A DNA stretch of 64,000 bases, from positions 248,001-312,000 of the forward strand of contig NZ_CP033924.1 in NCBI RefSeq assembly GCF_003815875.1, in the 5' to 3' direction. A program made the translations under genes and the position numbers. The stretch is from Chryseobacterium lactis. Lineage in GTDB: Bacteria; Bacteroidota; Bacteroidia; Flavobacteriales; Weeksellaceae. Below, one piece after another: positions 12,363-21,521 of this stretch; positions within the stretch are counted from its first letter, which is position 1, and every line of letters begins with the position of its first letter. The notes under the pieces are model-generated. The model was not told where the DNA came from. It ran no database searches and saw only the letters and a program-made list of their open reading frames with translations.

Positions 12363-13268
12363 ATGAAAGTTACTTTTGAAAGAGTAATTCCCAATGAGAA
12401 AAGCTCCTTTCGCACCATTCATAATAACTCTCCTATTTCAGAATTCAAATGGGAATATCATTATCATCCGGAAATTGAACTTGTATGTGTCATTTCCGGG
12501 AGCGGAACCCGACACGTAGGCTACCATAAAAGCAATTATACCCACGGTGATCTTGTACTGATTGGCTCCAATATTCCCCACTCCGGATTTGGTTTGAATT
12601 CTATTGATCCGCACGAAGAGATTGTGCTGCAGTTTAAAGAAGAAATTCTTCAGTTCCCGGAACAGGAGACCGAAGCCAGGTCTATCAAAAATTTGCTGGA
12701 ACTTTCAAAGTATGGGATTCATTTTCATCATAAAGAAAAAAAATCGCTCTTACCCAGACTAAGGCTTATGTTGGAATCGGAAGGTTACAAGAGATATTTA
12801 CTCCTTCTTGAAATTCTTTTTGAATTGTCTAAATGTAAAGATTATGATCTTTTGAATAAAGAAATCATGCCGTACACGATTATCTCCAAGAACAAAACGC
12901 GTCTTGAAAATATCTTCACCTATGTGGAACATCATTATGATAAAGAAATCAACATTGAAGAGGTTGCGAAACTTGCCAACCTGACATTGCCGGCTTTCTG
13001 TAACTTTTTTAAAAAGGCCACCCAAATCACTTTCACAGAATTTGTTAATCGTTATCGGATCAATAAAGCATGTCTGCTGATGGCACAAGACAAAACTATT
13101 TCAGAATGCAGTTATAGTTGTGGCTTCAATAATGTGACCTATTTCAATAGGATGTTTAAAAAATATACTGGAAAAACACCGTCGGAGTTTATTAAGAATT
13201 ATTCTCATAATAAAGTCAATGTAGATTTGAAGGTTGAAAATGAGACTAAAGCTAAGGTAAGTTTTTAA
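12363..13268 (+). CDS. AraC-family transcriptional regulator, probable regulator of the trehalose operon
   Basis: A 301-residue cytoplasmic DNA-binding protein. The N-terminal half is a cupin-like ligand domain: EYHYHPEIELVCVISGSGTRHVG (split here as EYHYHPEIEL then VCVISGSGTRHVG, about residues 31-53) and GDLVLIGSNIPHSG (72-85). The C-terminal ~100 residues carry two helix-turn-helix motifs with NIEEVAKLANLTLPAFCNFF and CGFNNVTYFNRMFKKYTGKTPSEF, the standard AraC signature. It is divergent from the MFS-trehalase-receptor operon with 123 bp between them, so local control, probably in response to a sugar, is inferred. AraC proteins of this type usually activate. Confidence 0.9.
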   Translation: MKVTFERVIPNEKSSFRTIHNNSPISEFKWEYHYHPEIELVCVISGSGTRHVGYHKSNYTHGDLVLIGSNIPHSGFGLNSIDPHEEIVLQFKEEILQFPEQETEARSIKNLLELSKYGIHFHHKEKKSLLPRLRLMLESEGYKRYLLLLEILFELSKCKDYDLLNKEIMPYTIISKNKTRLENIFTYVEHHYDKEINIEEVAKLANLTLPAFCNFFKKATQITFTEFVNRYRINKACLLMAQDKTISECSYSCGFNNVTYFNRMFKKYTGKTPSEFIKNYSHNKVNVDLKVENETKAKVSF

Positions 13269-13529: not shown

Positions 13530-14084
13530 TTATTTCCATTTAATATTGCATCCCATACTTGGTCTCTGAATTTCGTCCTGAGCTTCATCTGCTAAAAGAT
13601 TTTCAAAAGCAATAATTAAATCTTCTCCGGTCACATCTTTATTATTTCCCGGTCTTGAATCATCCATCTGGCCTCTGTAGATAAGATCCAGTTTATCATC
13701 AAAGAAATAAAAATCAGGGGTACAAGCCGCATCAAAAGCTTTGGCCACTGCCTGACTTTCATCAAATAAATAAGGAAAATCAAATTTTCTTTCAATCTGA
13801 AATTCAATCATTTTTTCCGGAGAGTCTGCCGGATATTTCTCAATATCATTAGAATTGATAGCAATGAATTCGATTCCTTTATCATTGTAGTCTTCGTACA
13901 ATTCATTGATCTTGTCAATCACATGAAGAACAAACGGACAATGGTTGCACATGAAGATGACCAACGTCCCTTTTTCTCCCTTCAGTTCTTCCAAAGACTG
14001 AAGTTCATTTGTTTTTGACGGGTTTGGAAGCTCAAAAAATGGAGCTTTCGTTCCTAATGCCAACATATTTGAAGGAGTATTCAT
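13530..14084 (-). CDS. Thioredoxin-fold protein of the AhpC/TSA-like type
   Basis: About 184 residues. The start at 14084 (MNTPSNMLALG) is preferred over an upstream ATG (14105) because the family begins near there. FMCNHCPFV holds a CxxC pair (about residues 46-49), placed where thioredoxin and peroxiredoxin-like proteins have their active Cys. AINSNDIEKYPADSPEKM and GTPDFYFFD-like CTPDFYFFD (the cis-Pro strand) follow. No signal peptide, so cytoplasmic. Proteins of this family are usually annotated as thioredoxin family protein; substrates are unknown. Single gene, convergent with the araC-type gene. Confidence 0.85.
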   Translation of the reverse strand: MNTPSNMLALGTKAPFFELPNPSKTNELQSLEELKGEKGTLVIFMCNHCPFVLHVIDKINELYEDYNDKGIEFIAINSNDIEKYPADSPEKMIEFQIERKFDFPYLFDESQAVAKAFDAACTPDFYFFDDKLDLIYRGQMDDSRPGNNKDVTGEDLIIAFENLLADEAQDEIQRPSMGCNIKWK

Positions 14085-14335
14085 ATCTTTTTTCTTTAGA
14101 TGCAAAGATAAAAATTTCTTTGATTATATGATAAGGAAGATAGAGAGCGAAAGAGCTAAATCATTAATTATATAAAAAAAATTAGTTCTCCCATTGAATG
14201 ATTGACTCAGGCTATTTACCACATTAATTTTTACAATAACTTCAACAAGACCTACTTAAACTGCTTCCAATAAACATTTTTTCAGCTCTCAACTAATTTT
14301 ACAAACCAGTCTTTAACGTTAAAAGACAAATTTCA
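14085..14335. other. Intergenic region before the TetR gene
   Basis: About 250 bp of AT-rich DNA between the divergent thioredoxin-like and TetR genes. Apart from the TetR promoter and operator described separately I see nothing distinct in it. Confidence 0.4.
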
Positions 14336-14368
14336 TTTGGAAGATATCTTAAAAAGTTTGTAGTTTTG
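14336..14368 (+). promoter_or_regulatory. Promoter of the TetR gene
   Basis: TTTG at 14336-14339 and TAGTTTTG at 14361-14368 fit the flavobacterial minus-33 and minus-7 elements with a 21-bp spacer. The expected transcription start (about 14374) falls inside the palindrome that follows. Confidence 0.65.
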
Positions 14369-14381
14369 CTAACACTGTTAG
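14369..14381. promoter_or_regulatory. TetR operator, copy 0 (CTAACACTGTTAG)
   Basis: A perfect 13-bp palindrome (centre C) placed directly after the minus-7 box and 9 bp before the TetR start codon. The same core occurs three more times in front of the efflux operon. Position over the transcription start predicts autorepression. Confidence 0.75.
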
Positions 14382-14390
14382 TAAATAAAT

Positions 14391-14987
14391 ATGGGCCTAC
14401 ATGAACGCCGTCAAAGAGAAAAAGAATCCATCCGTGCAAATATTTTGCAGGCGGCCTTTACTTTGGCTAAAACTGAAGGCTGGGCATCCCTATCCATGCG
14501 GAAAATTGCTGATGCCATTGAATACAGTGCACCCGTAGTTTATGATTATTTTGAAAACAAGGAGGCTATTTTATTTGAAATTTCTTTGGACGGATTTCAT
14601 AACCTGCACATTGAGTTACTAAAAGCTCAAAAGAAATATGACACTCCGGAAGAGCAACTTGTAGCGATTGTAGATGCCTACTGGAATTTTGCTTTTAAAA
14701 ATAAAGAATACTACCAGCTGATGTTTGGTTTGGGAATGCAATGTTGTGGAAAGGGACAGATGAAAAAAGAATTTTCATCATTTCAGGAGTTGATTTACGA
14801 GTGTACTTACGAGATTATTAAGAAAAACGGATCCAACCCGGATAATGCCTGTCATATGTCACATGCTTTATTTTCTGCAGTACATGGGATGATCTCTATT
14901 ATGATGATGCGTAATGCAGATATACCATCTACTATGAATAAAACGTCATTGGACGAAACTGTTTCATCTTTTATTAAGTCTTTATAA
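14391..14987 (+). CDS. TetR/AcrR-family repressor of the RND efflux operon
   Basis: A 198-residue regulator. Residues about 12-60 form the TetR helix-turn-helix (AAFTLAKTEGWASLSMRKIA, then YSAPVVYDYFENKEAILFE); the rest is the all-helical ligand domain. Proteins of this class repress efflux genes and let go of DNA when a toxic compound binds. It lies directly upstream of, and co-directional with, adaptor, pump and outer-membrane channel genes. The palindrome in its own promoter occurs three more times in the 15.0-15.3 kb region, so it is the obvious candidate to bind there. The ligand is not known. Confidence 0.92.
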   Translation: MGLHERRQREKESIRANILQAAFTLAKTEGWASLSMRKIADAIEYSAPVVYDYFENKEAILFEISLDGFHNLHIELLKAQKKYDTPEEQLVAIVDAYWNFAFKNKEYYQLMFGLGMQCCGKGQMKKEFSSFQELIYECTYEIIKKNGSNPDNACHMSHALFSAVHGMISIMMMRNADIPSTMNKTSLDETVSSFIKSL

Positions 14988-15007
14988 TTTTTTTTTGAAC
15001 TAAATAT

Positions 15008-15018
15008 TAACACCGTTA
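15008..15018. promoter_or_regulatory. Efflux operator copy 1 (TAACACCGTTA)
   Basis: One mismatch from the perfect palindrome TAACA-N-TGTTA. It is 20 bp after the TetR stop and is preceded by TTTTTTTTGAAC. A partial second site (TTAACACT) follows 8 bp downstream. Confidence 0.65.
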
Positions 15019-15084
15019 GGAAATTTAACACTCAATTAATTTAACTCACTCTTTTAAACTTCATTAAAAAACAAAAAATCAGTA

Positions 15085-15114
15085 ATGCAAAACGTTTACA
15101 AATTCACTTGCTAA
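15085..15114 (+). CDS. 9-codon mini-ORF 1 in efflux leader
   Basis: ATG followed by eight sense codons and TAA (MQNVYKFTC). It starts 77 bp after operator copy 1, the same distance at which the adaptor gene starts after operator copy 3. It may be a translated leader or the remnant of a duplicated gene start. There is no evidence for a product. Confidence 0.25.
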   Translation: MQNVYKFTC

Positions 15115-15139
15115 GGTAGCCATTTTTTCCCTTATTAAT

Positions 15140-15150
15140 TAACACCGTTA
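15140..15150. promoter_or_regulatory. Efflux operator copy 2 (TAACACCGTTA)
   Basis: Identical core to copy 1, 132 bp further on, and again followed by A/T bases and TAACACT. It lies 25 bp after mini-ORF 1. Confidence 0.65.
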
Positions 15151-15215
15151 GCAAATATAACACTTATTACACCTCATCTTTTTTATATATAAACCAACAT
15201 TTTAAATTTTCAATT

Positions 15216-15245
15216 ATGGAAACTATCGACTTGATCGGACATTAA
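15216..15245 (+). CDS. 9-codon mini-ORF 2 in efflux leader
   Basis: ATG, eight sense codons, TAA (METIDLIGH). It begins 76 bp after operator copy 2, mirroring mini-ORF 1. The peptide sequences of the two mini-ORFs are unrelated; only the layout repeats. Confidence 0.25.
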   Translation: METIDLIGH

Positions 15246-15275
15246 AAATTCTGTAATTTTTTTTGAACAAATCAT

Positions 15276-15286
15276 TAACACTGTTA
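15276..15286. promoter_or_regulatory. Efflux operator copy 3 (TAACACTGTTA)
   Basis: Perfect 11-bp palindrome, 81 bp before the adaptor start codon and 136 bp after copy 2. Like copy 1 it is preceded by TTTTTTTTGAAC, so both seem to share a duplicated promoter. Confidence 0.7.
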
Positions 15287-15356
15287 GGAAAAAAAACAGC
15301 ATTTATCACAAAAACATTACTTAAATCTAACACTTCATTAAAAAAATTAAACCAAA

Positions 15357-16517
15357 ATGAAAATACCTGGAAAAACAAGGTTTATTGTACTTATTTCAAG
15401 TATAATTCTTTTACAGAGCTGTACAAAAGCTGCCGAAGGATCCAATGCCGCGCCACCAGCTCCAGAACTTCCGGTTTATACCGTTATCTCTTCTCCTGCT
15501 ACTACTTATCAAGAATTTCCTACTGCCCTGGAAGGAAAAAATAATGTTGAAATCAGATCTCAGGTAGATGGCTATCTGGACAGAATTTATGTAGAGGAAG
15601 GTGCTTATGTAAGAGCCGGACAACCCTTATTTAAAATAGATTCAAGAAGCTATGGTGAGCAAATGAATATGGCTCAGGCTAATCTTCAGGCCGCCAATGC
15701 AAATATTGAAAAAGCAAGAGTAGAAGTAGACAGACTTCAGCCTCTGGTAGCAGCAAAAGTAGTTTCTGATGTACAACTGAAAACTGCAAAAGCTAATTAT
15801 GCTGCAGCTGTTGCCGCCGCTTCACAAGCAAGAGCTTCTGTAGGAAATGCAAAAATAAACGTAGGATTTACCACTATCACGGCTCCTGTAAGCGGTTATA
15901 TCGGAAGAATTCCTTATAAAAAAGGAAGTTTGATCTCCAGAACAGATCCTAGTCCATTGACTTTATTATCTGACATCAGTGAAATTTACGCCTACTTCTC
16001 TCTAAGTGAGCTTGATTTTATTGCTTTTCAAAATAAATATCCGGGGGCTACTTTGGATGAAAAGCTAAAAAATATGCCGATGGTTGAATTGGTGATCGCT
16101 GATAACAGTACATATCCTGAAAAAGGAAGACTGAGTATTGTAGACGGACAGTTTGACAAAACTACAGGTGCCATCAGCGTACGTGCTGTTTTCCCCAATG
16201 CAAACGGAACGCTGAGAACCGGAAATACCGGAAGAATACGTATGCCGCAATTGATCTCAAATGCAGTAGTTATTCCTCAGGAATCCACTTTTGAAATTCA
16301 GGATAAAACCTATGTATATGTAATGGGCAAAGATCAGAAAGTAACCGGAAAACCGATTAAAATCTCCGGAAAAACAGACAACTATTACTTTATTTCTGAA
16401 GGTCTTTCTCCGGGAGAAAAAATCGTATACACCGGAATTGGAAACTTGAAAGACGGAGCATCAATTAAGCCGAAAAACATGTCATCTGATAGCTTACTGA
16501 ATGCAAGACCTTTGTAA
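15357..16517 (+). CDS. RND efflux periplasmic adaptor (AcrA/MexA-like lipoprotein)
   Basis: A 386-residue membrane-fusion protein. A lipobox LLQSC puts the lipidated Cys at residue 22, so it is anchored in the inner membrane facing the periplasm. NNVEIRSQVDGYLDRIYVEEGAYVRAGQPLFKID is the biotinyl-lipoyl half (seen as NVEIRSQVDGYLDRI then GAYVRAGQPLFKID), followed by an alpha-hairpin coiled coil (about 95-165) and the second lipoyl half with ITAPVSGYIGRI. Beta-barrel and membrane-proximal domains complete the normal length. It bridges the pump at 16713 and the channel at 20109. Confidence 0.95.
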   Translation: MKIPGKTRFIVLISSIILLQSCTKAAEGSNAAPPAPELPVYTVISSPATTYQEFPTALEGKNNVEIRSQVDGYLDRIYVEEGAYVRAGQPLFKIDSRSYGEQMNMAQANLQAANANIEKARVEVDRLQPLVAAKVVSDVQLKTAKANYAAAVAAASQARASVGNAKINVGFTTITAPVSGYIGRIPYKKGSLISRTDPSPLTLLSDISEIYAYFSLSELDFIAFQNKYPGATLDEKLKNMPMVELVIADNSTYPEKGRLSIVDGQFDKTTGAISVRAVFPNANGTLRTGNTGRIRMPQLISNAVVIPQESTFEIQDKTYVYVMGKDQKVTGKPIKISGKTDNYYFISEGLSPGEKIVYTGIGNLKDGASIKPKNMSSDSLLNARPL

Positions 16518-16712: not shown

Positions 16713-19700
16713 ATGTTAAAACAATTTATAGAAAGACCGGTACTTTCAACGGTCATCTCCATAATACTTTTATTATTGGGAGCTTTGTCTCTCTTTAATT
16801 TACCCATTGCCCTCTTTCCGGATATTGCACCGCCAAGTGTTCAGGTAACCGCCTTTTATCCGGGAGCGAATGCTGAGGTAGTGGCACGTTCTGTAGCCAC
16901 TCCTATTGAGGAAGCGGTGAACGGGGTTGAAAACATGACTTACATGACGTCAAACTCAAGTAACGACGGTACAATGACCCTGAGTGTATTCTTCAAACAG
17001 GGAGCTGATGCTGATAATGCAGCAGTAAACGTTCAGAACCGTGTATCAAAGGCAATGAGTCAACTTCCTCAAGAGGTTGTACAGGCTGGAATCTCGACGC
17101 AGAAAGTTCAGAACAGTATGATCATGTTTATGGGACTTACCAGCGAAGATGAAAAACAATACGACGAACTATTCTTGCAAAACTACCTGAAAATTAACGT
17201 AATCCCTCAAATACAGCGTATTCCTGGGGTCGCTCAGGCTCAGGTATTCGGAACGAGAGATTATTCGATGAGAATCTGGCTGAAACCGGATCGACTGGCT
17301 GCTAATAATCTTTCTCCACAGGAAGTTCTTGCAGCAATCAAAGATCATAACCTTGAAGCGGCTCCTGGTCGTCTTGGACAAGGAAGTAAGGAAACGTATG
17401 AATATATCCTTAAATATAAAGGAAAACTAAACAAAGGTGAAGATTACGAAAATATTGCTATTAAAGCCAATAGTGACGGATCATTCCTTAGATTAAAAGA
17501 TGTAGCAAGAGTAGAATTTGGTTCTTATACATATACGGCAACCAACAGAGTAGATGGAAAACCGGTTGCCGGATTTGCAATCTTACAGACTGCCGGTTCT
17601 AATGCCAACGAAATTCTTACTGAAATTGAAAAGCAGGTCAAAGTAATGGAAACGACTCTGCCTAAAGGAGTGAAGCCAATTATCATGTATAATTCCAAGG
17701 ATTTCCTTGATGCTTCTATTCATCAGGTAGTGGAAACGCTGGTTATAGCATTTATTCTTGTGTTTATTGTAGTTTATATTTTCCTTCAGGATTTCAGATC
17801 TACATTAATTCCGGCCATTGCAGTGCCGGTAGCGATTATTGGGACTTTCTTCTTCCTTCAATTATTTGGATTCAGTATCAACATGCTTACTTTATTTGCA
17901 TTGGTACTCGCCATTGGTATTGTAGTGGATGATGCGATTGTGGTAGTGGAAGCCGTCCATTCCAAAATGGAACAAACGGGAATGCCGGTTGAACAGGCAA
18001 CGACGAATTCGATGAGTGAAATTTCCGGAGCGATCATTTCCATTACATTGGTGATGTGTGCCGTGTTTATTCCGGTAGGTTTCATGCAAGGGCCGGCAGG
18101 AGTATTTTACAGACAGTTTGCCTTCACTTTAGCCATCGCCATTCTTATTTCTGCTGTAAATGCATTAACATTAAGCCCGGCATTATGTGCTATGTTCTTA
18201 AATGACCCTCAGGGAGAGCATGGTGAACACGGTCATAAAACAGGTTTTGGAGCAAGATTCTTCAATGCTTTTAATGCGAGCTTCAACAACATGACCAGAA
18301 AATATATTTACAGCCTTAAGTTTTTAATTAAAAATAAATGGGTTGCCATCGGAGGTCTTGCGCTTATTACAGCAACAAGTATCTTCCTGATTAAAAAAGC
18401 TCCATCCGGGTTCATTCCTACGGAGGATCAGGGATTTGTATTGTATGCGGTGAATACGCCTCCCGGAAGCTCATTGGAAAGAACCCACAGAGCTACCGAA
18501 CAGATCGATAAAATTATCAATGGTGAAAAAGCAACCAATCACCTATGGGTGGCAGACGGAATGAACTTCATCAGTAATGCCAATGCATCACCTTATTCTG
18601 CAGGTTTTATTAAGCTTAAAGATTATGACAAACGAGGTGATATGAAAGATCCGGATCAGATTGCAGGGACACTGACAGGAAAAGTAAGTCAGGTGAAAGA
18701 TGCGAATGCATTCTTCTTCAACTTCCCTACCGTACAAGGTTTTGGTAACGTTTCCGGTTTCGAATTCATGCTTCAGGATAAAACGAACGGTTCTTTTGAA
18801 CAATTAGGCACAACCACTCAGAAATTTATTGGTGAGCTGATGAAACGTCCTGAAATTGCCTTCGCATTTACAACGTATGCTGCAGGAAATCCACAATACA
18901 CCATTGATGTGGATACAGATAAAGCCAATCAGCTTGGAGTTTCAGTGACAGAATTGATGCAAACCATGCAGATTTATTTCGGAAGTAGTTTTGTATCCGA
19001 TTTCAACAGATTTGGAAAATACTACCGCGTAATGGCTCAGGCGGATATTCCATACCGTACAGATGCCAACTCACTGGAAGGTATTTATGTAAAAAATAAA
19101 ACGGGCGAAATGGTTCCTGCAAAAACGTTGGTGACTTTAAAAAGAACTTTTGGCCCTGAAACGGTAACCAGAAATAACCTTTTCAACGCTGTGACAATTA
19201 ACGGAACTCCAAAACCAGGTTATAGTACCGGAGATGCCATTAAAGCCGTAGAAGAAGTTGCTCAACAATCACTGCCAAGAGGTTATGGATATGAATGGAC
19301 AGGGATTACCCGTGAAGAGATTAAAACAGGAGGCCAAACGGTATTTATCTTCTTGCTAAGTATCTTGTTTGTGTACTTCCTTCTGGCGGCACAGTATGAA
19401 AGTTACATCCTTCCGTTTGCCATTATTCTTACCATTCCTACTGGAGTATTTGGGGTATTTGCCTTCACAGGACTGGCTGGAATTGATAATAATATTTATG
19501 TACAAGTTGGATTGATCATGCTTGTAGGACTTTTGGCCAAAAATGCCATTCTGATTGTGGAATTTGCCGTACAAAGAAGAAAAGCAGGGAAATCATTGAT
19601 AGAATCTGCTCTTCAGGCTTCAAGATTACGTTTAAGACCGATCCTGATGACTTCTTTTGCCTTTATCGTAGGAATGCTGCCATTAGTCTGGACTCAGGGA

Positions 19701-19895
19701 GCGTCTGCAAAAGGGAACCATTCAATCGGTTACAGTACCGTGGGAGGAATGCTGACAGGAGTTATCTTCGGAATTTTTATCATCCCGGTAATGTACGTAA
19801 TATTCCAGTACCTGCATGAAAAAATGCCAAGCAGAAAGAAGAAAAGACTTCAAAGACAAAAACTGGAGGCAGAACTTTTATCAAGTCCTCATTAA
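16713..19895 (+). CDS. RND multidrug efflux pump, HAE1/AcrB family
   Basis: 1060 residues, the normal size for an AcrB-type inner-membrane proton/drug antiporter. It begins MLKQFIERPVLSTVISI, the typical first helix, then ALFPDIAPPSVQVTAFYPGA. The helix-4 motif GIVVDDAIVVVEAV holds the proton-relay Asp pair, and NAILIVEFA marks helix 10. GFIPTEDQG and PVAIIGTFF are further family marks. It expels lipophilic compounds from the periplasm or inner leaflet with the proton gradient. A gap of 195 bp without clear promoter separates it from the adaptor gene. Substrates are not predictable from the sequence. Confidence 0.96.
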   Translation: MLKQFIERPVLSTVISIILLLLGALSLFNLPIALFPDIAPPSVQVTAFYPGANAEVVARSVATPIEEAVNGVENMTYMTSNSSNDGTMTLSVFFKQGADADNAAVNVQNRVSKAMSQLPQEVVQAGISTQKVQNSMIMFMGLTSEDEKQYDELFLQNYLKINVIPQIQRIPGVAQAQVFGTRDYSMRIWLKPDRLAANNLSPQEVLAAIKDHNLEAAPGRLGQGSKETYEYILKYKGKLNKGEDYENIAIKANSDGSFLRLKDVARVEFGSYTYTATNRVDGKPVAGFAILQTAGSNANEILTEIEKQVKVMETTLPKGVKPIIMYNSKDFLDASIHQVVETLVIAFILVFIVVYIFLQDFRSTLIPAIAVPVAIIGTFFFLQLFGFSINMLTLFALVLAIGIVVDDAIVVVEAVHSKMEQTGMPVEQATTNSMSEISGAIISITLVMCAVFIPVGFMQGPAGVFYRQFAFTLAIAILISAVNALTLSPALCAMFLNDPQGEHGEHGHKTGFGARFFNAFNASFNNMTRKYIYSLKFLIKNKWVAIGGLALITATSIFLIKKAPSGFIPTEDQGFVLYAVNTPPGSSLERTHRATEQIDKIINGEKATNHLWVADGMNFISNANASPYSAGFIKLKDYDKRGDMKDPDQIAGTLTGKVSQVKDANAFFFNFPTVQGFGNVSGFEFMLQDKTNGSFEQLGTTTQKFIGELMKRPEIAFAFTTYAAGNPQYTIDVDTDKANQLGVSVTELMQTMQIYFGSSFVSDFNRFGKYYRVMAQADIPYRTDANSLEGIYVKNKTGEMVPAKTLVTLKRTFGPETVTRNNLFNAVTINGTPKPGYSTGDAIKAVEEVAQQSLPRGYGYEWTGITREEIKTGGQTVFIFLLSILFVYFLLAAQYESYILPFAIILTIPTGVFGVFAFTGLAGIDNNIYVQVGLIMLVGLLAKNAILIVEFAVQRRKAGKSLIESALQASRLRLRPILMTSFAFIVGMLPLVWTQGASAKGNHSIGYSTVGGMLTGVIFGIFIIPVMYVIFQYLHEKMPSRKKKRLQRQKLEAELLSSPH

Positions 19896-19907: not shown

Positions 19908-20086
19908 TACAAAACTTTGAGGAAATTTTAAAACAAAAAATTGATTTAAAATTTCATTAAAAAGCTAAGGGTCGTAAGCTGATTTATCAAACGTACGCCT
20001 TACCTCTTTTTAATGGTTTACAAAAGCAAAGTATTTTCTCCTACTAAAGACAAACTGTGCATATAAAAACCTCTCAAAGTTTTGTA
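19908..20086. repeat. Inverted-repeat element between pump and channel genes
   Basis: TACAAAACTTTGAG (19908-19921) is the exact reverse complement of CTCAAAGTTTTGTA (20073-20086). Inside, CATTAAAAAG (19955-19964) and CTTTTTAATG (around 20005-20015) form a second, nested pair. The 179-bp unit could fold into a large hairpin in the efflux transcript. TTAATGGTTTACAA in its right half also occurs near 22792, so it may be a dispersed element or MITE remnant. Confidence 0.65.
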
Positions 20087-20108: not shown

Positions 20109-21521
20109 ATGAAAAGACTAAAAAATATAATTCTAACATTCGCGATAGCTTTAGGAGCTGTTTCATGTGTGTCTAAAATGGCATTCAAGGAACCTGACCT
20201 GCCGCTTCCCGAAAAATTCCAGTACACCGCGACTGCCGATACCGCCAGTGTTGCTAATCTGGAATGGAAACAATTTTTCAACGATCCTATTTTGCAGGGA
20301 TTGATTGAGAAAGGAATTAAAAATAATTATGACCTTCAGATTGCCTTAAAGCAGGTTTCTGCATCACAGGAAAAACTGAAACAAGCCAAATACATGCAAT
20401 ATCCTGATGTAGGATTCGGGGTAACAGGTCAGATTTCAAAGCCTTCTAAAAATAGCATGAACGGGCAAAGCTTAAATTTATTTTTAGGACAAAGCCACGT
20501 TGAAGATTATAATGCAGCCTTCAATCTTTCCTGGGAAGCTGATATTTGGGGGAAAATCAAAAATCAGCAGGAAGTTTCAAGAATGCAGTATCTGCAGACT
20601 TATGAAGGTTCCAAAGCGATTCAGACTCAGGTTGTAGCAGCGATTGCCCAGGGATATTATAATCTTCTGATGCTTGACAAACAATTAGGTATTGCAAAAT
20701 CAAATCTGGAGTTAACAAATAACACCTTACTGATCACTCAAAAAATGTGGGAAAGTGGTGATACCACTTCTTTAGGAGTACAACAGGCAAGTGCTCAGAA
20801 ACAGGCTACCGAACTTCTGATTACTCAATTGGAACAAAACATTGCTATCCAGGAAAATGCATTGAGTATTCTGGTTGGTGAGACTCCGAATAAAGTAAAC
20901 AGAACGCTGGAAATGTCTGACAGCTCTCTTCCTCAAAACATCAGTGCAGGACTTCCAGCAGCAATGGTGAGCCGCAGACCGGATGTCCGTCAGCAGGAAC
21001 TTGTATTGCTGGAATCTAATGCTATGGTAGGAATTGCACAGGCAAGCATGTACCCGGCATTGAAAATCACAGCAAACGGAGGAGTAAATTCATTCAAATT
21101 TGATAACTGGTTCCAGATTCCGGCATCGTTATTTGGTTCAGTATTAGGAGGACTGACACAACCTATTTTCCAGAAAAAGCAATTGAAAACAGATCTGGAA
21201 GTAGCCAAAATACAGCGGGAGAAAAATGTACTGGCATTTCGTCAGTCTGTCCTGAATGCCGTTGGTGAAGTTTCCGACGCTTTGGTTTCTAACGAAAGTT
21301 TAAAGACTCAGGAACAGAAAGCTGCCGAACAGGCAACCACCCTAAAGGATGGAATTAAAAGTGCACAACTTCTTTACAGAGGAGGTTCAGCCAATTATCT
21401 TGAAGTAATTACCGCACAAGGAAATTCGCTTCAGGCGGAACTCAACCTGGCTTCCATTAAAAGACAGAGATTAAGCAGCATTGTAGATTTATACAGAGCG
21501 CTGGGCGGCGGTTGGAAGTAG
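20109..21521 (+). CDS. TolC-family outer-membrane efflux channel (lipoprotein, OprM-like)
   Basis: About 470 residues from the ATG at 20109; the longer frame from 20082 has no signal-like N-terminus. The N-terminus has a lipobox ending VSC (about Cys18), as in OprM/NodT-type channels. Two repeated outer-membrane efflux domains follow (about 50-245 and 270-465), with RRPDVRQQELVLLESNAMVGIAQASMYPALKI in the middle as the family mark (read in parts: RRPDVRQQEL and AQASMYPALKI). It forms the trimeric outer-membrane duct of the efflux complex. Third gene of the operon, followed by a terminator. Confidence 0.93.
   Translation: MKRLKNIILTFAIALGAVSCVSKMAFKEPDLPLPEKFQYTATADTASVANLEWKQFFNDPILQGLIEKGIKNNYDLQIALKQVSASQEKLKQAKYMQYPDVGFGVTGQISKPSKNSMNGQSLNLFLGQSHVEDYNAAFNLSWEADIWGKIKNQQEVSRMQYLQTYEGSKAIQTQVVAAIAQGYYNLLMLDKQLGIAKSNLELTNNTLLITQKMWESGDTTSLGVQQASAQKQATELLITQLEQNIAIQENALSILVGETPNKVNRTLEMSDSSLPQNISAGLPAAMVSRRPDVRQQELVLLESNAMVGIAQASMYPALKITANGGVNSFKFDNWFQIPASLFGSVLGGLTQPIFQKKQLKTDLEVAKIQREKNVLAFRQSVLNAVGEVSDALVSNESLKTQEQKAAEQATTLKDGIKSAQLLYRGGSANYLEVITAQGNSLQAELNLASIKRQRLSSIVDLYRALGGGWK

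What the first reader, a model, noticed from the sequence alone, without database searches (positions are those of the whole stretch)
14369..15357. Four copies of one TetR operator, three of them in regular modules with 9-codon mini-ORFs before an RND efflux operon
The palindrome TAACA-C-(T/C)GTTA occurs at 14370, 15008, 15140 and 15276. The last three are spaced 132 and 136 bp, and each is followed after 76-81 bp by an ATG: mini-ORFs of nine codons at 15085 and 15216, then the adaptor gene at 15357. Modules 1 and 3 share TTTTTTTTGAAC just before the palindrome. This points to a tandem duplication of promoter, operator and leader, with truncated gene starts, or to a stack of three repressed promoters with translated leaders. 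The first operator overlaps the TetR gene's own start site.
Basis: partly seen in the sequence, partly recalled or inferred. Interest (0 to 1): 0.7.

Follow-up and report, generated by a model that had tools for sequence, protein, structure and literature searches.

The report
Repeated repressor sites guarding efflux pump
A drug-pump operon in Chryseobacterium is preceded by three (in relatives two to four) copies of its own repressor's likely binding site, with tiny genes in between; the array recurs in two bacterial families, so it looks like a real control device whose exact working is open.

Summary
TAACACYGTTA occurs four times in the window, all at this locus (0.05 expected), at the stated coordinates and spacings. 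Relatives make it stronger. Of 171 genomes with tetR and adaptor, 151 have three operators in the tetR-adaptor gap, 11 two and 9 four (3 of the 9 count a closely placed extra match). A second family with 42-45% identical TetR has 3-4 operator-like sites in 13 of 13 loci; a paralogous operon has one. A T-tract precedes 410 of 511 gap operators and none at tetR, but only 24 of 48 in the second family. The mini-ORFs are not mere remnants. An ATG lies 50-62 nt before the last operator in 163 of 171 genomes (23.6 expected). A 17-codon module-1 ORF in 34 genomes is plainly coding. The window's METIDLIGH* shows moderate coding constraint; its MQNVYKFTC* shows none. Best reading: a TetR repression array, probably tandem repressed promoters. 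The rival, favoured by the lack of canonical -7 boxes in the gap, is a ladder of TetR roadblocks to read-through from the tetR promoter.

The parts
14336..14339 (+). TTTG, -33-like element of the tetR promoter
   Evidence: TTTGG 96-100% conserved at this position in the 171 loci; role inferred
14361..14368 (+). TAGTTTTG, canonical -7 box (TANNTTTG) of tetR
   Evidence: TANNTTTG within 100 bp upstream of tetR in 171 of 171 genomes; position
14370..14380 (+). Operator 1 (tetR autoregulation), TAACACTGTTA
   Evidence: a TAAC-N3-GTTA site near the tetR start in 170 of 171 genomes
14391..14987 (+). tetR, TetR-family repressor, 198 aa
   Evidence: PF00440 E 4.1e-12, PF13305 E 3.5e-8; 144 of 148 same-genus genomes
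14988..14996 (+). T-tract of module 1 (T9, then GAAC), directly after the tetR stop codon
   Evidence: T-run >=6 in 171 of 171 first modules, 0 of 170 at the tetR operator
15008..15018 (+). Operator 2 (module 1)
15085..15114 (+). Mini-ORF 1, MQNVYKFTC* (9 codons); no evidence of coding constraint
   Evidence: N/S ratio 1.24 for its set of 36; A at -3 in 4 of 36
15123..15128 (+). T-tract of module 2 (T6)
   Evidence: T-run >=6 in 82 of 169 middle modules
15140..15150 (+). Operator 3 (module 2)
15216..15245 (+). Mini-ORF 2, METIDLIGH* (9 codons), moderate coding constraint
   Evidence: N/S 0.64 for its set of 50, p 0.036, other frames 1.32 and 2.57; A at -3 in 46 of 50
15257..15264 (+). T-tract of module 3 (T8, then GAAC)
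   Evidence: T-run >=6 in 157 of 171 last modules
15276..15286 (+). Operator 4 (module 3)
15357..16517 (+). RND periplasmic adaptor (MexE/AcrA-like)
   Evidence: TIGR01730 E 1.1e-78
16713..19895 (+). RND permease (AcrB-type)
   Evidence: PF00873 E 0, 1071 bits
20109..21521 (+). Outer-membrane efflux protein (NodT type)
   Evidence: TIGR01845 E 3.3e-86 (translated from the TTG at 20082); first ATG of the ORF at 20109

Best explanation
It is a multi-copy repression array for an RND multidrug efflux operon. TetR binds one operator over the start site of its own canonical promoter, and three further copies between its gene and the pump. In the uninduced cell TetR blocks transcription into the pump at each of the three; a ligand (unknown) releases all of them. 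I think it most likely (about one in two) that each gap module is a weak, non-canonical promoter (T-tract, operator, 5' leader, start codon), so that P1 and P2 lead into mini-ORFs and P3 into the adaptor, giving tight repression and additive output on induction. The mini-ORFs are translation start sites in the leaders; in the window the second is probably translated, the first may not be. Shown: the sites, their conservation, coding constraint on some mini-ORFs. Inferred: TetR binding, promoter activity, induction, translation.
For: Repeated operators in the tetR-adaptor gap in 171 of 171 genomes and, operator-like, in 13 of 13 loci of another family; the same site once in the paralogue. Four of 148 genus members lack tetR, and these four lack a close adaptor too, best 40-43% identity. 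In the window each gap operator is followed at 76-81 bp by an ATG, the last being the adaptor's. T-tract and operator keep a steady distance in the main set and before many middle operators of the other family. In the paralogue TTTTG lies 10 nt before the operator (counted by eye). TTTTTTTG is one mismatch from the -7 box in 143 of 171 first and 122 of 171 last modules. A at -3, a translation enhancer in F. johnsoniae (PMC6847099; passages and section 14 seen), precedes mini-ORFs in 34 of 34, 46 of 50 and 79 of 97. A promoter without a recognised box is not rare: in F. psychrophilum 1194 of 1884 mapped starts had one (PMC9723704, section 15 part 1).
Against: No canonical -7 box (TANNTTTG) on the + strand of the gap in 162 of 171 genomes, nor in the first 235 nt of the gap in 9 of 13 loci of the other family; the T-tract's one mismatch falls on the near-invariant A-11. 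Sites in the other family are only 54-60 bp apart for the first two intervals in 11 of 13, little room for separate promoters and leaders. Start codons keep their distance to the next operator (sd 3.8) better than to the preceding one (sd 17.6; adaptor 4.2), which a promoter-leader module does not predict. T-runs are missing in half of middle modules (82 of 169 have one) and in 24 of 48 sites of the other family.
Confidence: 0.48

Rival explanations
1. Roadblock ladder. The pump is transcribed by read-through from the canonical tetR promoter. TetR on the gap operators stops elongating polymerase, whose RNA 3' end then sits in the T-tract 12-20 bp upstream, where the weak hybrid is released. 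The first site acts as a repressor-made terminator of tetR mRNA, so tetR stays expressed while the pump is shut. Several sites are needed because single roadblocks leak; mini-ORFs place a ribosome behind the stalled polymerase.
For: Canonical -7 box upstream of tetR in 171 of 171 genomes but on the + strand of the gap in 9 of 171; 13 of 13 against 4 of 13 in the other family. T-run >=6 before 171 of 171 first and 157 of 171 last gap operators and 0 of 170 tetR operators. First operator starts 20-22 nt after the tetR stop codon in 170 of 171, and 19-23 nt in 13 of 13 of the other family. No structured terminator in the window after tetR (z +0.82). ATG 50-62 nt before the last operator in 163 of 171 whatever the ORF length. 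A trailing ribosome can help polymerase past a LacI roadblock (PMC4132739, passages).
Against: No transcript data. TTTTG-N10-operator in the paralogue fits a promoter as well. Only 24 of 48 sites in the other family have a T-run, mostly middle ones, and 4 of 13 of its loci have an ATG 50-62 nt before the last site. Translation before a roadblock would weaken repression. Where the RNA 3' end of a blocked polymerase lies is recalled, not computed.
Confidence: 0.3
2. Leader-peptide attenuation. Mini-ORFs sense slowed ribosomes (for example by ribosome-targeting drugs) and thereby control transcription or translation of the pump, in addition to TetR.
For: 17-codon ORF under purifying selection (changes by codon position 50/12/72; N/S 0.41 over codons 2-17, other frames 2.4 and 9.9); stop swaps among TAA, TGA and TAG at codon 6 (15 swaps, 5 losses among single-base changes, 31% swaps expected, p 6e-5); leaders with C far above G, which could be Rho targets. 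Known analogues: toiL (PMC12121999, abstract), tetQ (table entry in PMC5418344).
Against: Seven leader stretches of the window fold no better than shuffles (z -0.58 to +1.04); ORF sequence and length differ between clades; in 24 genomes the module-1 ORF is a start codon followed at once by a stop; 5-codon and module-1 9-codon sets show no amino-acid constraint; over all changes stop swaps and losses are 16 and 14.
Confidence: 0.1
3. Neutral remnants: tandem duplications left extra operator copies and truncated gene starts without function.
For: Copy number varies 2-4 and some copies are degenerate, above all in the other family; first and last modules share a core of about 40 bp.
Against: Repeated operators persist in 171 and 13 loci of two families, T-tracts and start codons in most of the first set, while leaders diverge; coding constraint on some ORFs.
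Confidence: 0.06
4. Extra operators mainly titrate TetR (decoys), setting the induction threshold rather than blocking transcription locally.
For: Sites keep sequence but no helical phase: no periodicity at 10, 10.5 or 11 bp over 59 distinct spacings.
Against: Does not explain T-tract spacing, ATG placement or confinement to the gap.
Confidence: 0.04

Closest known systems
TetR/AcrR-repressed RND efflux operons (AcrR-AcrAB, TtgR-TtgABC; recalled; TtgR 8v90 is a weak sequence match, E 4.6e-4)
   Same: TetR-family repressor next to adaptor, permease and outer-membrane genes; operator over the repressor's own promoter
   Different: Three operator copies (two to four in relatives) in the gap, with T-tracts and mini-ORFs; repressor upstream and co-directional
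Attenuator leader peptides of resistance genes (toiL, PMC12121999 abstract; tetQ, ermK, fexA, vmlR in the table of PMC5418344)
   Same: Short ORFs upstream of a regulated gene, some under coding selection
   Different: No RNA structure beyond shuffles in the window; ORFs sit between repressor operators; no single conserved peptide
Repressor roadblocks (LacI roadblocking, PMC4132739, passages)
   Same: Operators downstream of the only canonical promoter seen
   Different: Repeated natural sites, most with a T-tract in front; roadblocking itself not shown
peTrpL and the SmeR/SmeAB system of Sinorhizobium (PMC7298713, abstract)
   Same: A leader peptide and a repressor bear on one multidrug efflux operon
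   Different: peTrpL acts in trans on repressor mRNA; here ORFs lie in cis between operators

Membership tests
TetR-autoregulated RND efflux operon | TetR_N DNA-binding domain and TetR C-terminal domain | tested here: met
   PF00440 E 4.1e-12 and PF13305 E 3.5e-8, both above the gathering score
TetR-autoregulated RND efflux operon | Adjacent adaptor, RND permease, outer-membrane protein | tested here: met
TetR-autoregulated RND efflux operon | Palindromic operator at the repressor's own promoter and before the pump, conserved with the repressor | tested here: met
   the paralogue has the site only before the adaptor
TetR-autoregulated RND efflux operon | Repressor binds the operators and is released by a ligand | not testable with these tools
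   No binding data; best PDB sequence match E 1.3e-10 to a TetR-family chain, 3cjd
Leader-peptide attenuator | Upstream short ORF under coding selection | tested here: inconclusive
   Met for the 17-codon ORF (34 genomes), moderately for the METIDLIGH type (50); not for the 5-codon set (97) nor the module-1 9-codon set (36), which includes the window's mini-ORF 1
Leader-peptide attenuator | Competing RNA structures or intrinsic terminator | tested here: not met
   Seven stretches of the window fold no better than shuffles, z -0.58 to +1.04; relatives not folded
Leader-peptide attenuator | Ribosome stalling in the ORF changes expression | not testable with these tools
   Needs experiment
Tandem sigmaA promoters | A -7 box TANNTTTG in each module | tested here: not met
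   On the + strand of the gap in 9 of 171 genomes, against 171 of 171 upstream of tetR; 4 of 13 in the other family. In the window only 9 of 29 genes have TAHHTTTG within 150 bp, so absence alone is weak evidence
Repressor roadblock | Transcripts ending just before the operator in repressed cells | not testable with these tools
   No RNA data

The most novel reading that the evidence does not exclude
The array is a repressor-operated ladder of terminators: TetR bound at successive operators stops polymerase with its RNA end in a T-tract, so the repressor makes the terminator of its own mRNA and keeps the pump off. Translated mini-ORFs of 1-17 codons with starts at a set distance before the next operator bring a ribosome to the rear of the stalled polymerase, so that translation state tunes how much pump is made.
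Probability: 0.15. Interest if true: 0.8.

Novelty: new variant of a known kind. Interest (0 to 1): 0.52.

Why it matters
Repressor arrays of this kind could explain how a repressor and a pump in one co-directional unit are expressed at different levels, and give a comparative test bed (two to four copies, mini-ORFs of 1, 5, 9 and 17 codons, two families) for whether repressors act on elongating polymerase. Chryseobacterium indologenes is an emerging, often multidrug-resistant hospital germ (abstract start of PMC12382657 in the listing). I found no description of this control in the open-access library searched (listings).

Tried and rejected
Wrong pattern first: TAACANCNGTTA, one base too long, missed all four sites; corrected. 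Helical phasing of operators: no signal over 59 distinct spacings. RNA structure and intrinsic terminators in the window: none above shuffles. Whole-module duplication: pre-T-tract segments (median z 0.52 and -0.07; control -0.15) and leaders (0.15-0.49) are no more alike than composition, in every fourth tip of the tree (35-43 comparisons). Antisense promoters: the operator's right flank resembles a minus-strand -7 box at one mismatch in 112 of 171 first, 94 of 166 middle and 91 of 171 last modules, and perfectly in 22 of 166 middle ones; a full TANNTTTG is on the minus strand of the gap in 45 of 171 genomes, the window included. I lean to this flank belonging to the operator, since an AT-rich flank also follows the tetR operator in the other family, but antisense transcription is not excluded. 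Titration and neutral remnants are kept as weak rivals. A regulon beyond this locus: none above chance in the window's genome.

Limits: changes were counted by parsimony on a tree of tetR alone; ORF sets were defined by length, which conditions on the stop codon; binomial p values treat inferred changes as independent; shuffles keep base content only. For the stop-swap test all changes give 16 swaps and 14 losses; single-base changes give 15 and 5. Genus names: Chryseobacterium and Epilithonimonas come from matching contig positions to handles; g23 (probably Elizabethkingia) and g35 (probably Flavobacterium) are my inference, no call names them. Of 179 loci with tetR, 6 duplicates, L159 (no adaptor) and L142 (broken tetR) were dropped before the 171-genome counts; G089 was not fetched because its contig ends next to tetR. 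The automatic adaptor start was misplaced in two or three of the 13 other-family loci (L300, L303, perhaps L307), so one search misses the last site of L300 and L303, which searches show.
Full report
What is there. A tetR gene (14391-14987) is followed in the same direction by an RND adaptor, an AcrB-type permease and an outer-membrane protein. TAACACYGTTA occurs at 14370, 15008, 15140 and 15276 and nowhere else in the window (4 found, 0.05 expected). In the whole genome there are four further matches, which is chance level.

Is it conserved? TetR is in 144 of 148 sampled genomes of the genus at E 1e-30 and in 70 of 197 of the family, in 3 of 33 genera. I read the tetR-adaptor gap of 171 genomes. 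With the pattern TAAC-N3-GTTA, 151 have three operators in the gap, 11 two (one of these with a third, one-mismatch copy) and 9 four; three of the nine (L107, L124, L133) count an extra match placed close to another. The first operator starts 20-22 nt after the tetR stop codon in 170 of 171, and an operator lies near the tetR start in 170 of 171.

A wider control. A search of the order with a paralogous TetR matched 46 of 296 genomes, 13 of them in another family. TetR there is 42-45% identical to the window's in the five compared. All 13 gaps have 3 or 4 operator-like sites with at most one mismatch (0.01-0.06 expected); the first two intervals are 54-60 and 54-57 bp in 11 of 13 and the third 79-81 bp in the 9 that have one. 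The first site starts 19-23 nt after the stop codon in 13 of 13. The paralogue itself, in two genomes of the window's genus, has one operator of the same sequence in a gap of about 73 bp, none before its tetR, and no mini-ORF. So the same kind of operator goes with diverged branches of this TetR lineage, and the array is probably older than the genus.

Anatomy of a module. The tetR promoter has a canonical flavobacterial -7 box directly in front of its operator: TANNTTTG in 171 of 171 genomes and 13 of 13 in the other family. The published consensus TAHHTTTG is from PMC6847099 (passages and section 14) and PMC9723704 (passages and section 15 part 1). The gap lacks TANNTTTG on the + strand in 162 of 171 genomes and in 9 of 13; on the minus strand 45 of 171 have one, the window included. 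Gap operators instead tend to have a T-tract about 10 bp upstream: a run of six or more T in 171 of 171 first, 82 of 169 middle and 157 of 171 last modules, and in 0 of 170 at tetR; in the other family 24 of 48 sites, mostly the middle ones. Downstream of the operator a GNAAAWWTAACA flank is conserved. First and last modules thus share about 40 bp, but their leaders are no more alike than composition predicts.

The mini-ORFs. In the penultimate module an ATG lies 40-80 nt before the last operator in 169 of 171 genomes; the ORF has 5 codons in 93, 9 codons in 51 (nearly all METIDLIGH-like), and other lengths in 25. An ATG lies 50-62 nt before the last operator in 163 of 171 (23.6 expected) and before the second operator in 91 of 160 (27.5 expected); in the other family in 4 of 13. 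In module 1 or, in some four-module species, module 2, 34 genomes carry a 17-codon ORF (such as MKYDFFTLFLAIFFPYH). In 33 of them it starts 51 nt before an operator, so that its stop codon is the operator's first three bases; in L118 the next matching operator is 172 nt away. Changes by codon position in codons 2-11 are 50, 12 and 72, p 1.3e-6. The nonsynonymous to synonymous ratio is 0.41 for this ORF over codons 2-17 (0.56 over 2-11; 2.4 and 9.9 in the other frames) and 0.64 for the METIDLIGH type (p 0.036; 1.32 and 2.57 in other frames). It is 1.77 for the 5-codon set and 1.24 for 9-codon module-1 ORFs such as the window's MQNVYKFTC, that is, no sign of peptide constraint; tetR itself gives 0.064. 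Stops at codon 6 change among TAA, TGA and TAG more often than expected (15 swaps, 5 losses among single-base changes; 16 and 14 over all changes). A at -3, a translation enhancer in F. johnsoniae (PMC6847099), is found in 34 of 34, 46 of 50 and 79 of 97, but in 4 of 36 of the module-1 9-codon set. In 24 genomes the module-1 ORF is a start codon followed at once by a stop. The plain reading is that a start codon before the next operator is selected, that the peptide matters in some lineages, and that the window's first mini-ORF has the weakest case.

How it may work. The two leading models both have TetR holding the pump off at several sites between its own gene and the pump. Tandem repressed promoters are the more usual design and fit the operator-leader-ATG geometry, but need promoters without the canonical -7 box; such starts are not rare, since 1194 of 1884 mapped starts in F. 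psychrophilum had a recognised site. A roadblock ladder fits the missing -7 boxes, T-tracts where the stalled RNA end would be, the fixed first site after the tetR stop, the close packing in the other family, and start codons held at a distance from the next operator (sd 3.8 against 17.6 from the preceding one). The patchy T-tracts of middle modules and of the other family speak against both in their simple form. I put the two at about 0.48 and 0.30. Attenuation through RNA structure is not supported: seven stretches of the window fold no better than shuffles.

Known or new. TetR-controlled RND operons (recalled), leader peptides of resistance genes (PMC5418344 passages; PMC12121999 and PMC7298713 abstracts) and repressor roadblocks (PMC4132739 passages) are known. 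I found no account of a conserved multi-operator array with mini-ORFs: searches, listings only, in an open-access library. I rate it a new variant of a known kind.

Noticed in passing
window 15152-15159 (-): A perfect minus-strand -7 box (TATATTTG) directly to the right of operator 3, in the same arrangement as the tetR promoter and its operator: a possible antisense promoter. 45 of 171 genomes have TANNTTTG on the minus strand of the gap.
   Followed up: no
L159 (G256:C9, genus g9): tetR, its operator, and the first T-tract and operator remain, but the pump is gone: no orthologous adaptor in the genome (best 39% identity) and other open frames follow.
   Followed up: partly
L142 (G127:C1:831930-832522): tetR is interrupted (two TGA in the match, two overlapping pieces) while the operators and the 9-codon mini-ORF MDIIDLIGH are there; decay or a sequencing error.
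   Followed up: no
L094, L116, L117, L125, L131, L186: Genomes with a fourth module; in L186 two neighbouring modules both carry the ORF MEMTI, a likely recent tandem duplication.
   Followed up: partly
window 15241-15268 and relatives: ATTAAAAATTCTGTAATTTTTTTTGAAC before the last module is conserved beyond the T-tract in many species; it resembles the tetR 3' end by eye, but not significantly.
   Followed up: partly
L124, L133: An extra operator-like site 18 bp downstream of the second operator.
   Followed up: no
G052, G066, G078, G098: Four same-genus genomes lack both this tetR (E 1e-30) and a close adaptor (best 40-43% identity).
   Followed up: partly
12363-13268 (+) and 13530-14105 (-): Upstream neighbours: an AraC-type regulator with a cupin domain and a redoxin-family gene transcribed away from tetR.
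   Followed up: no
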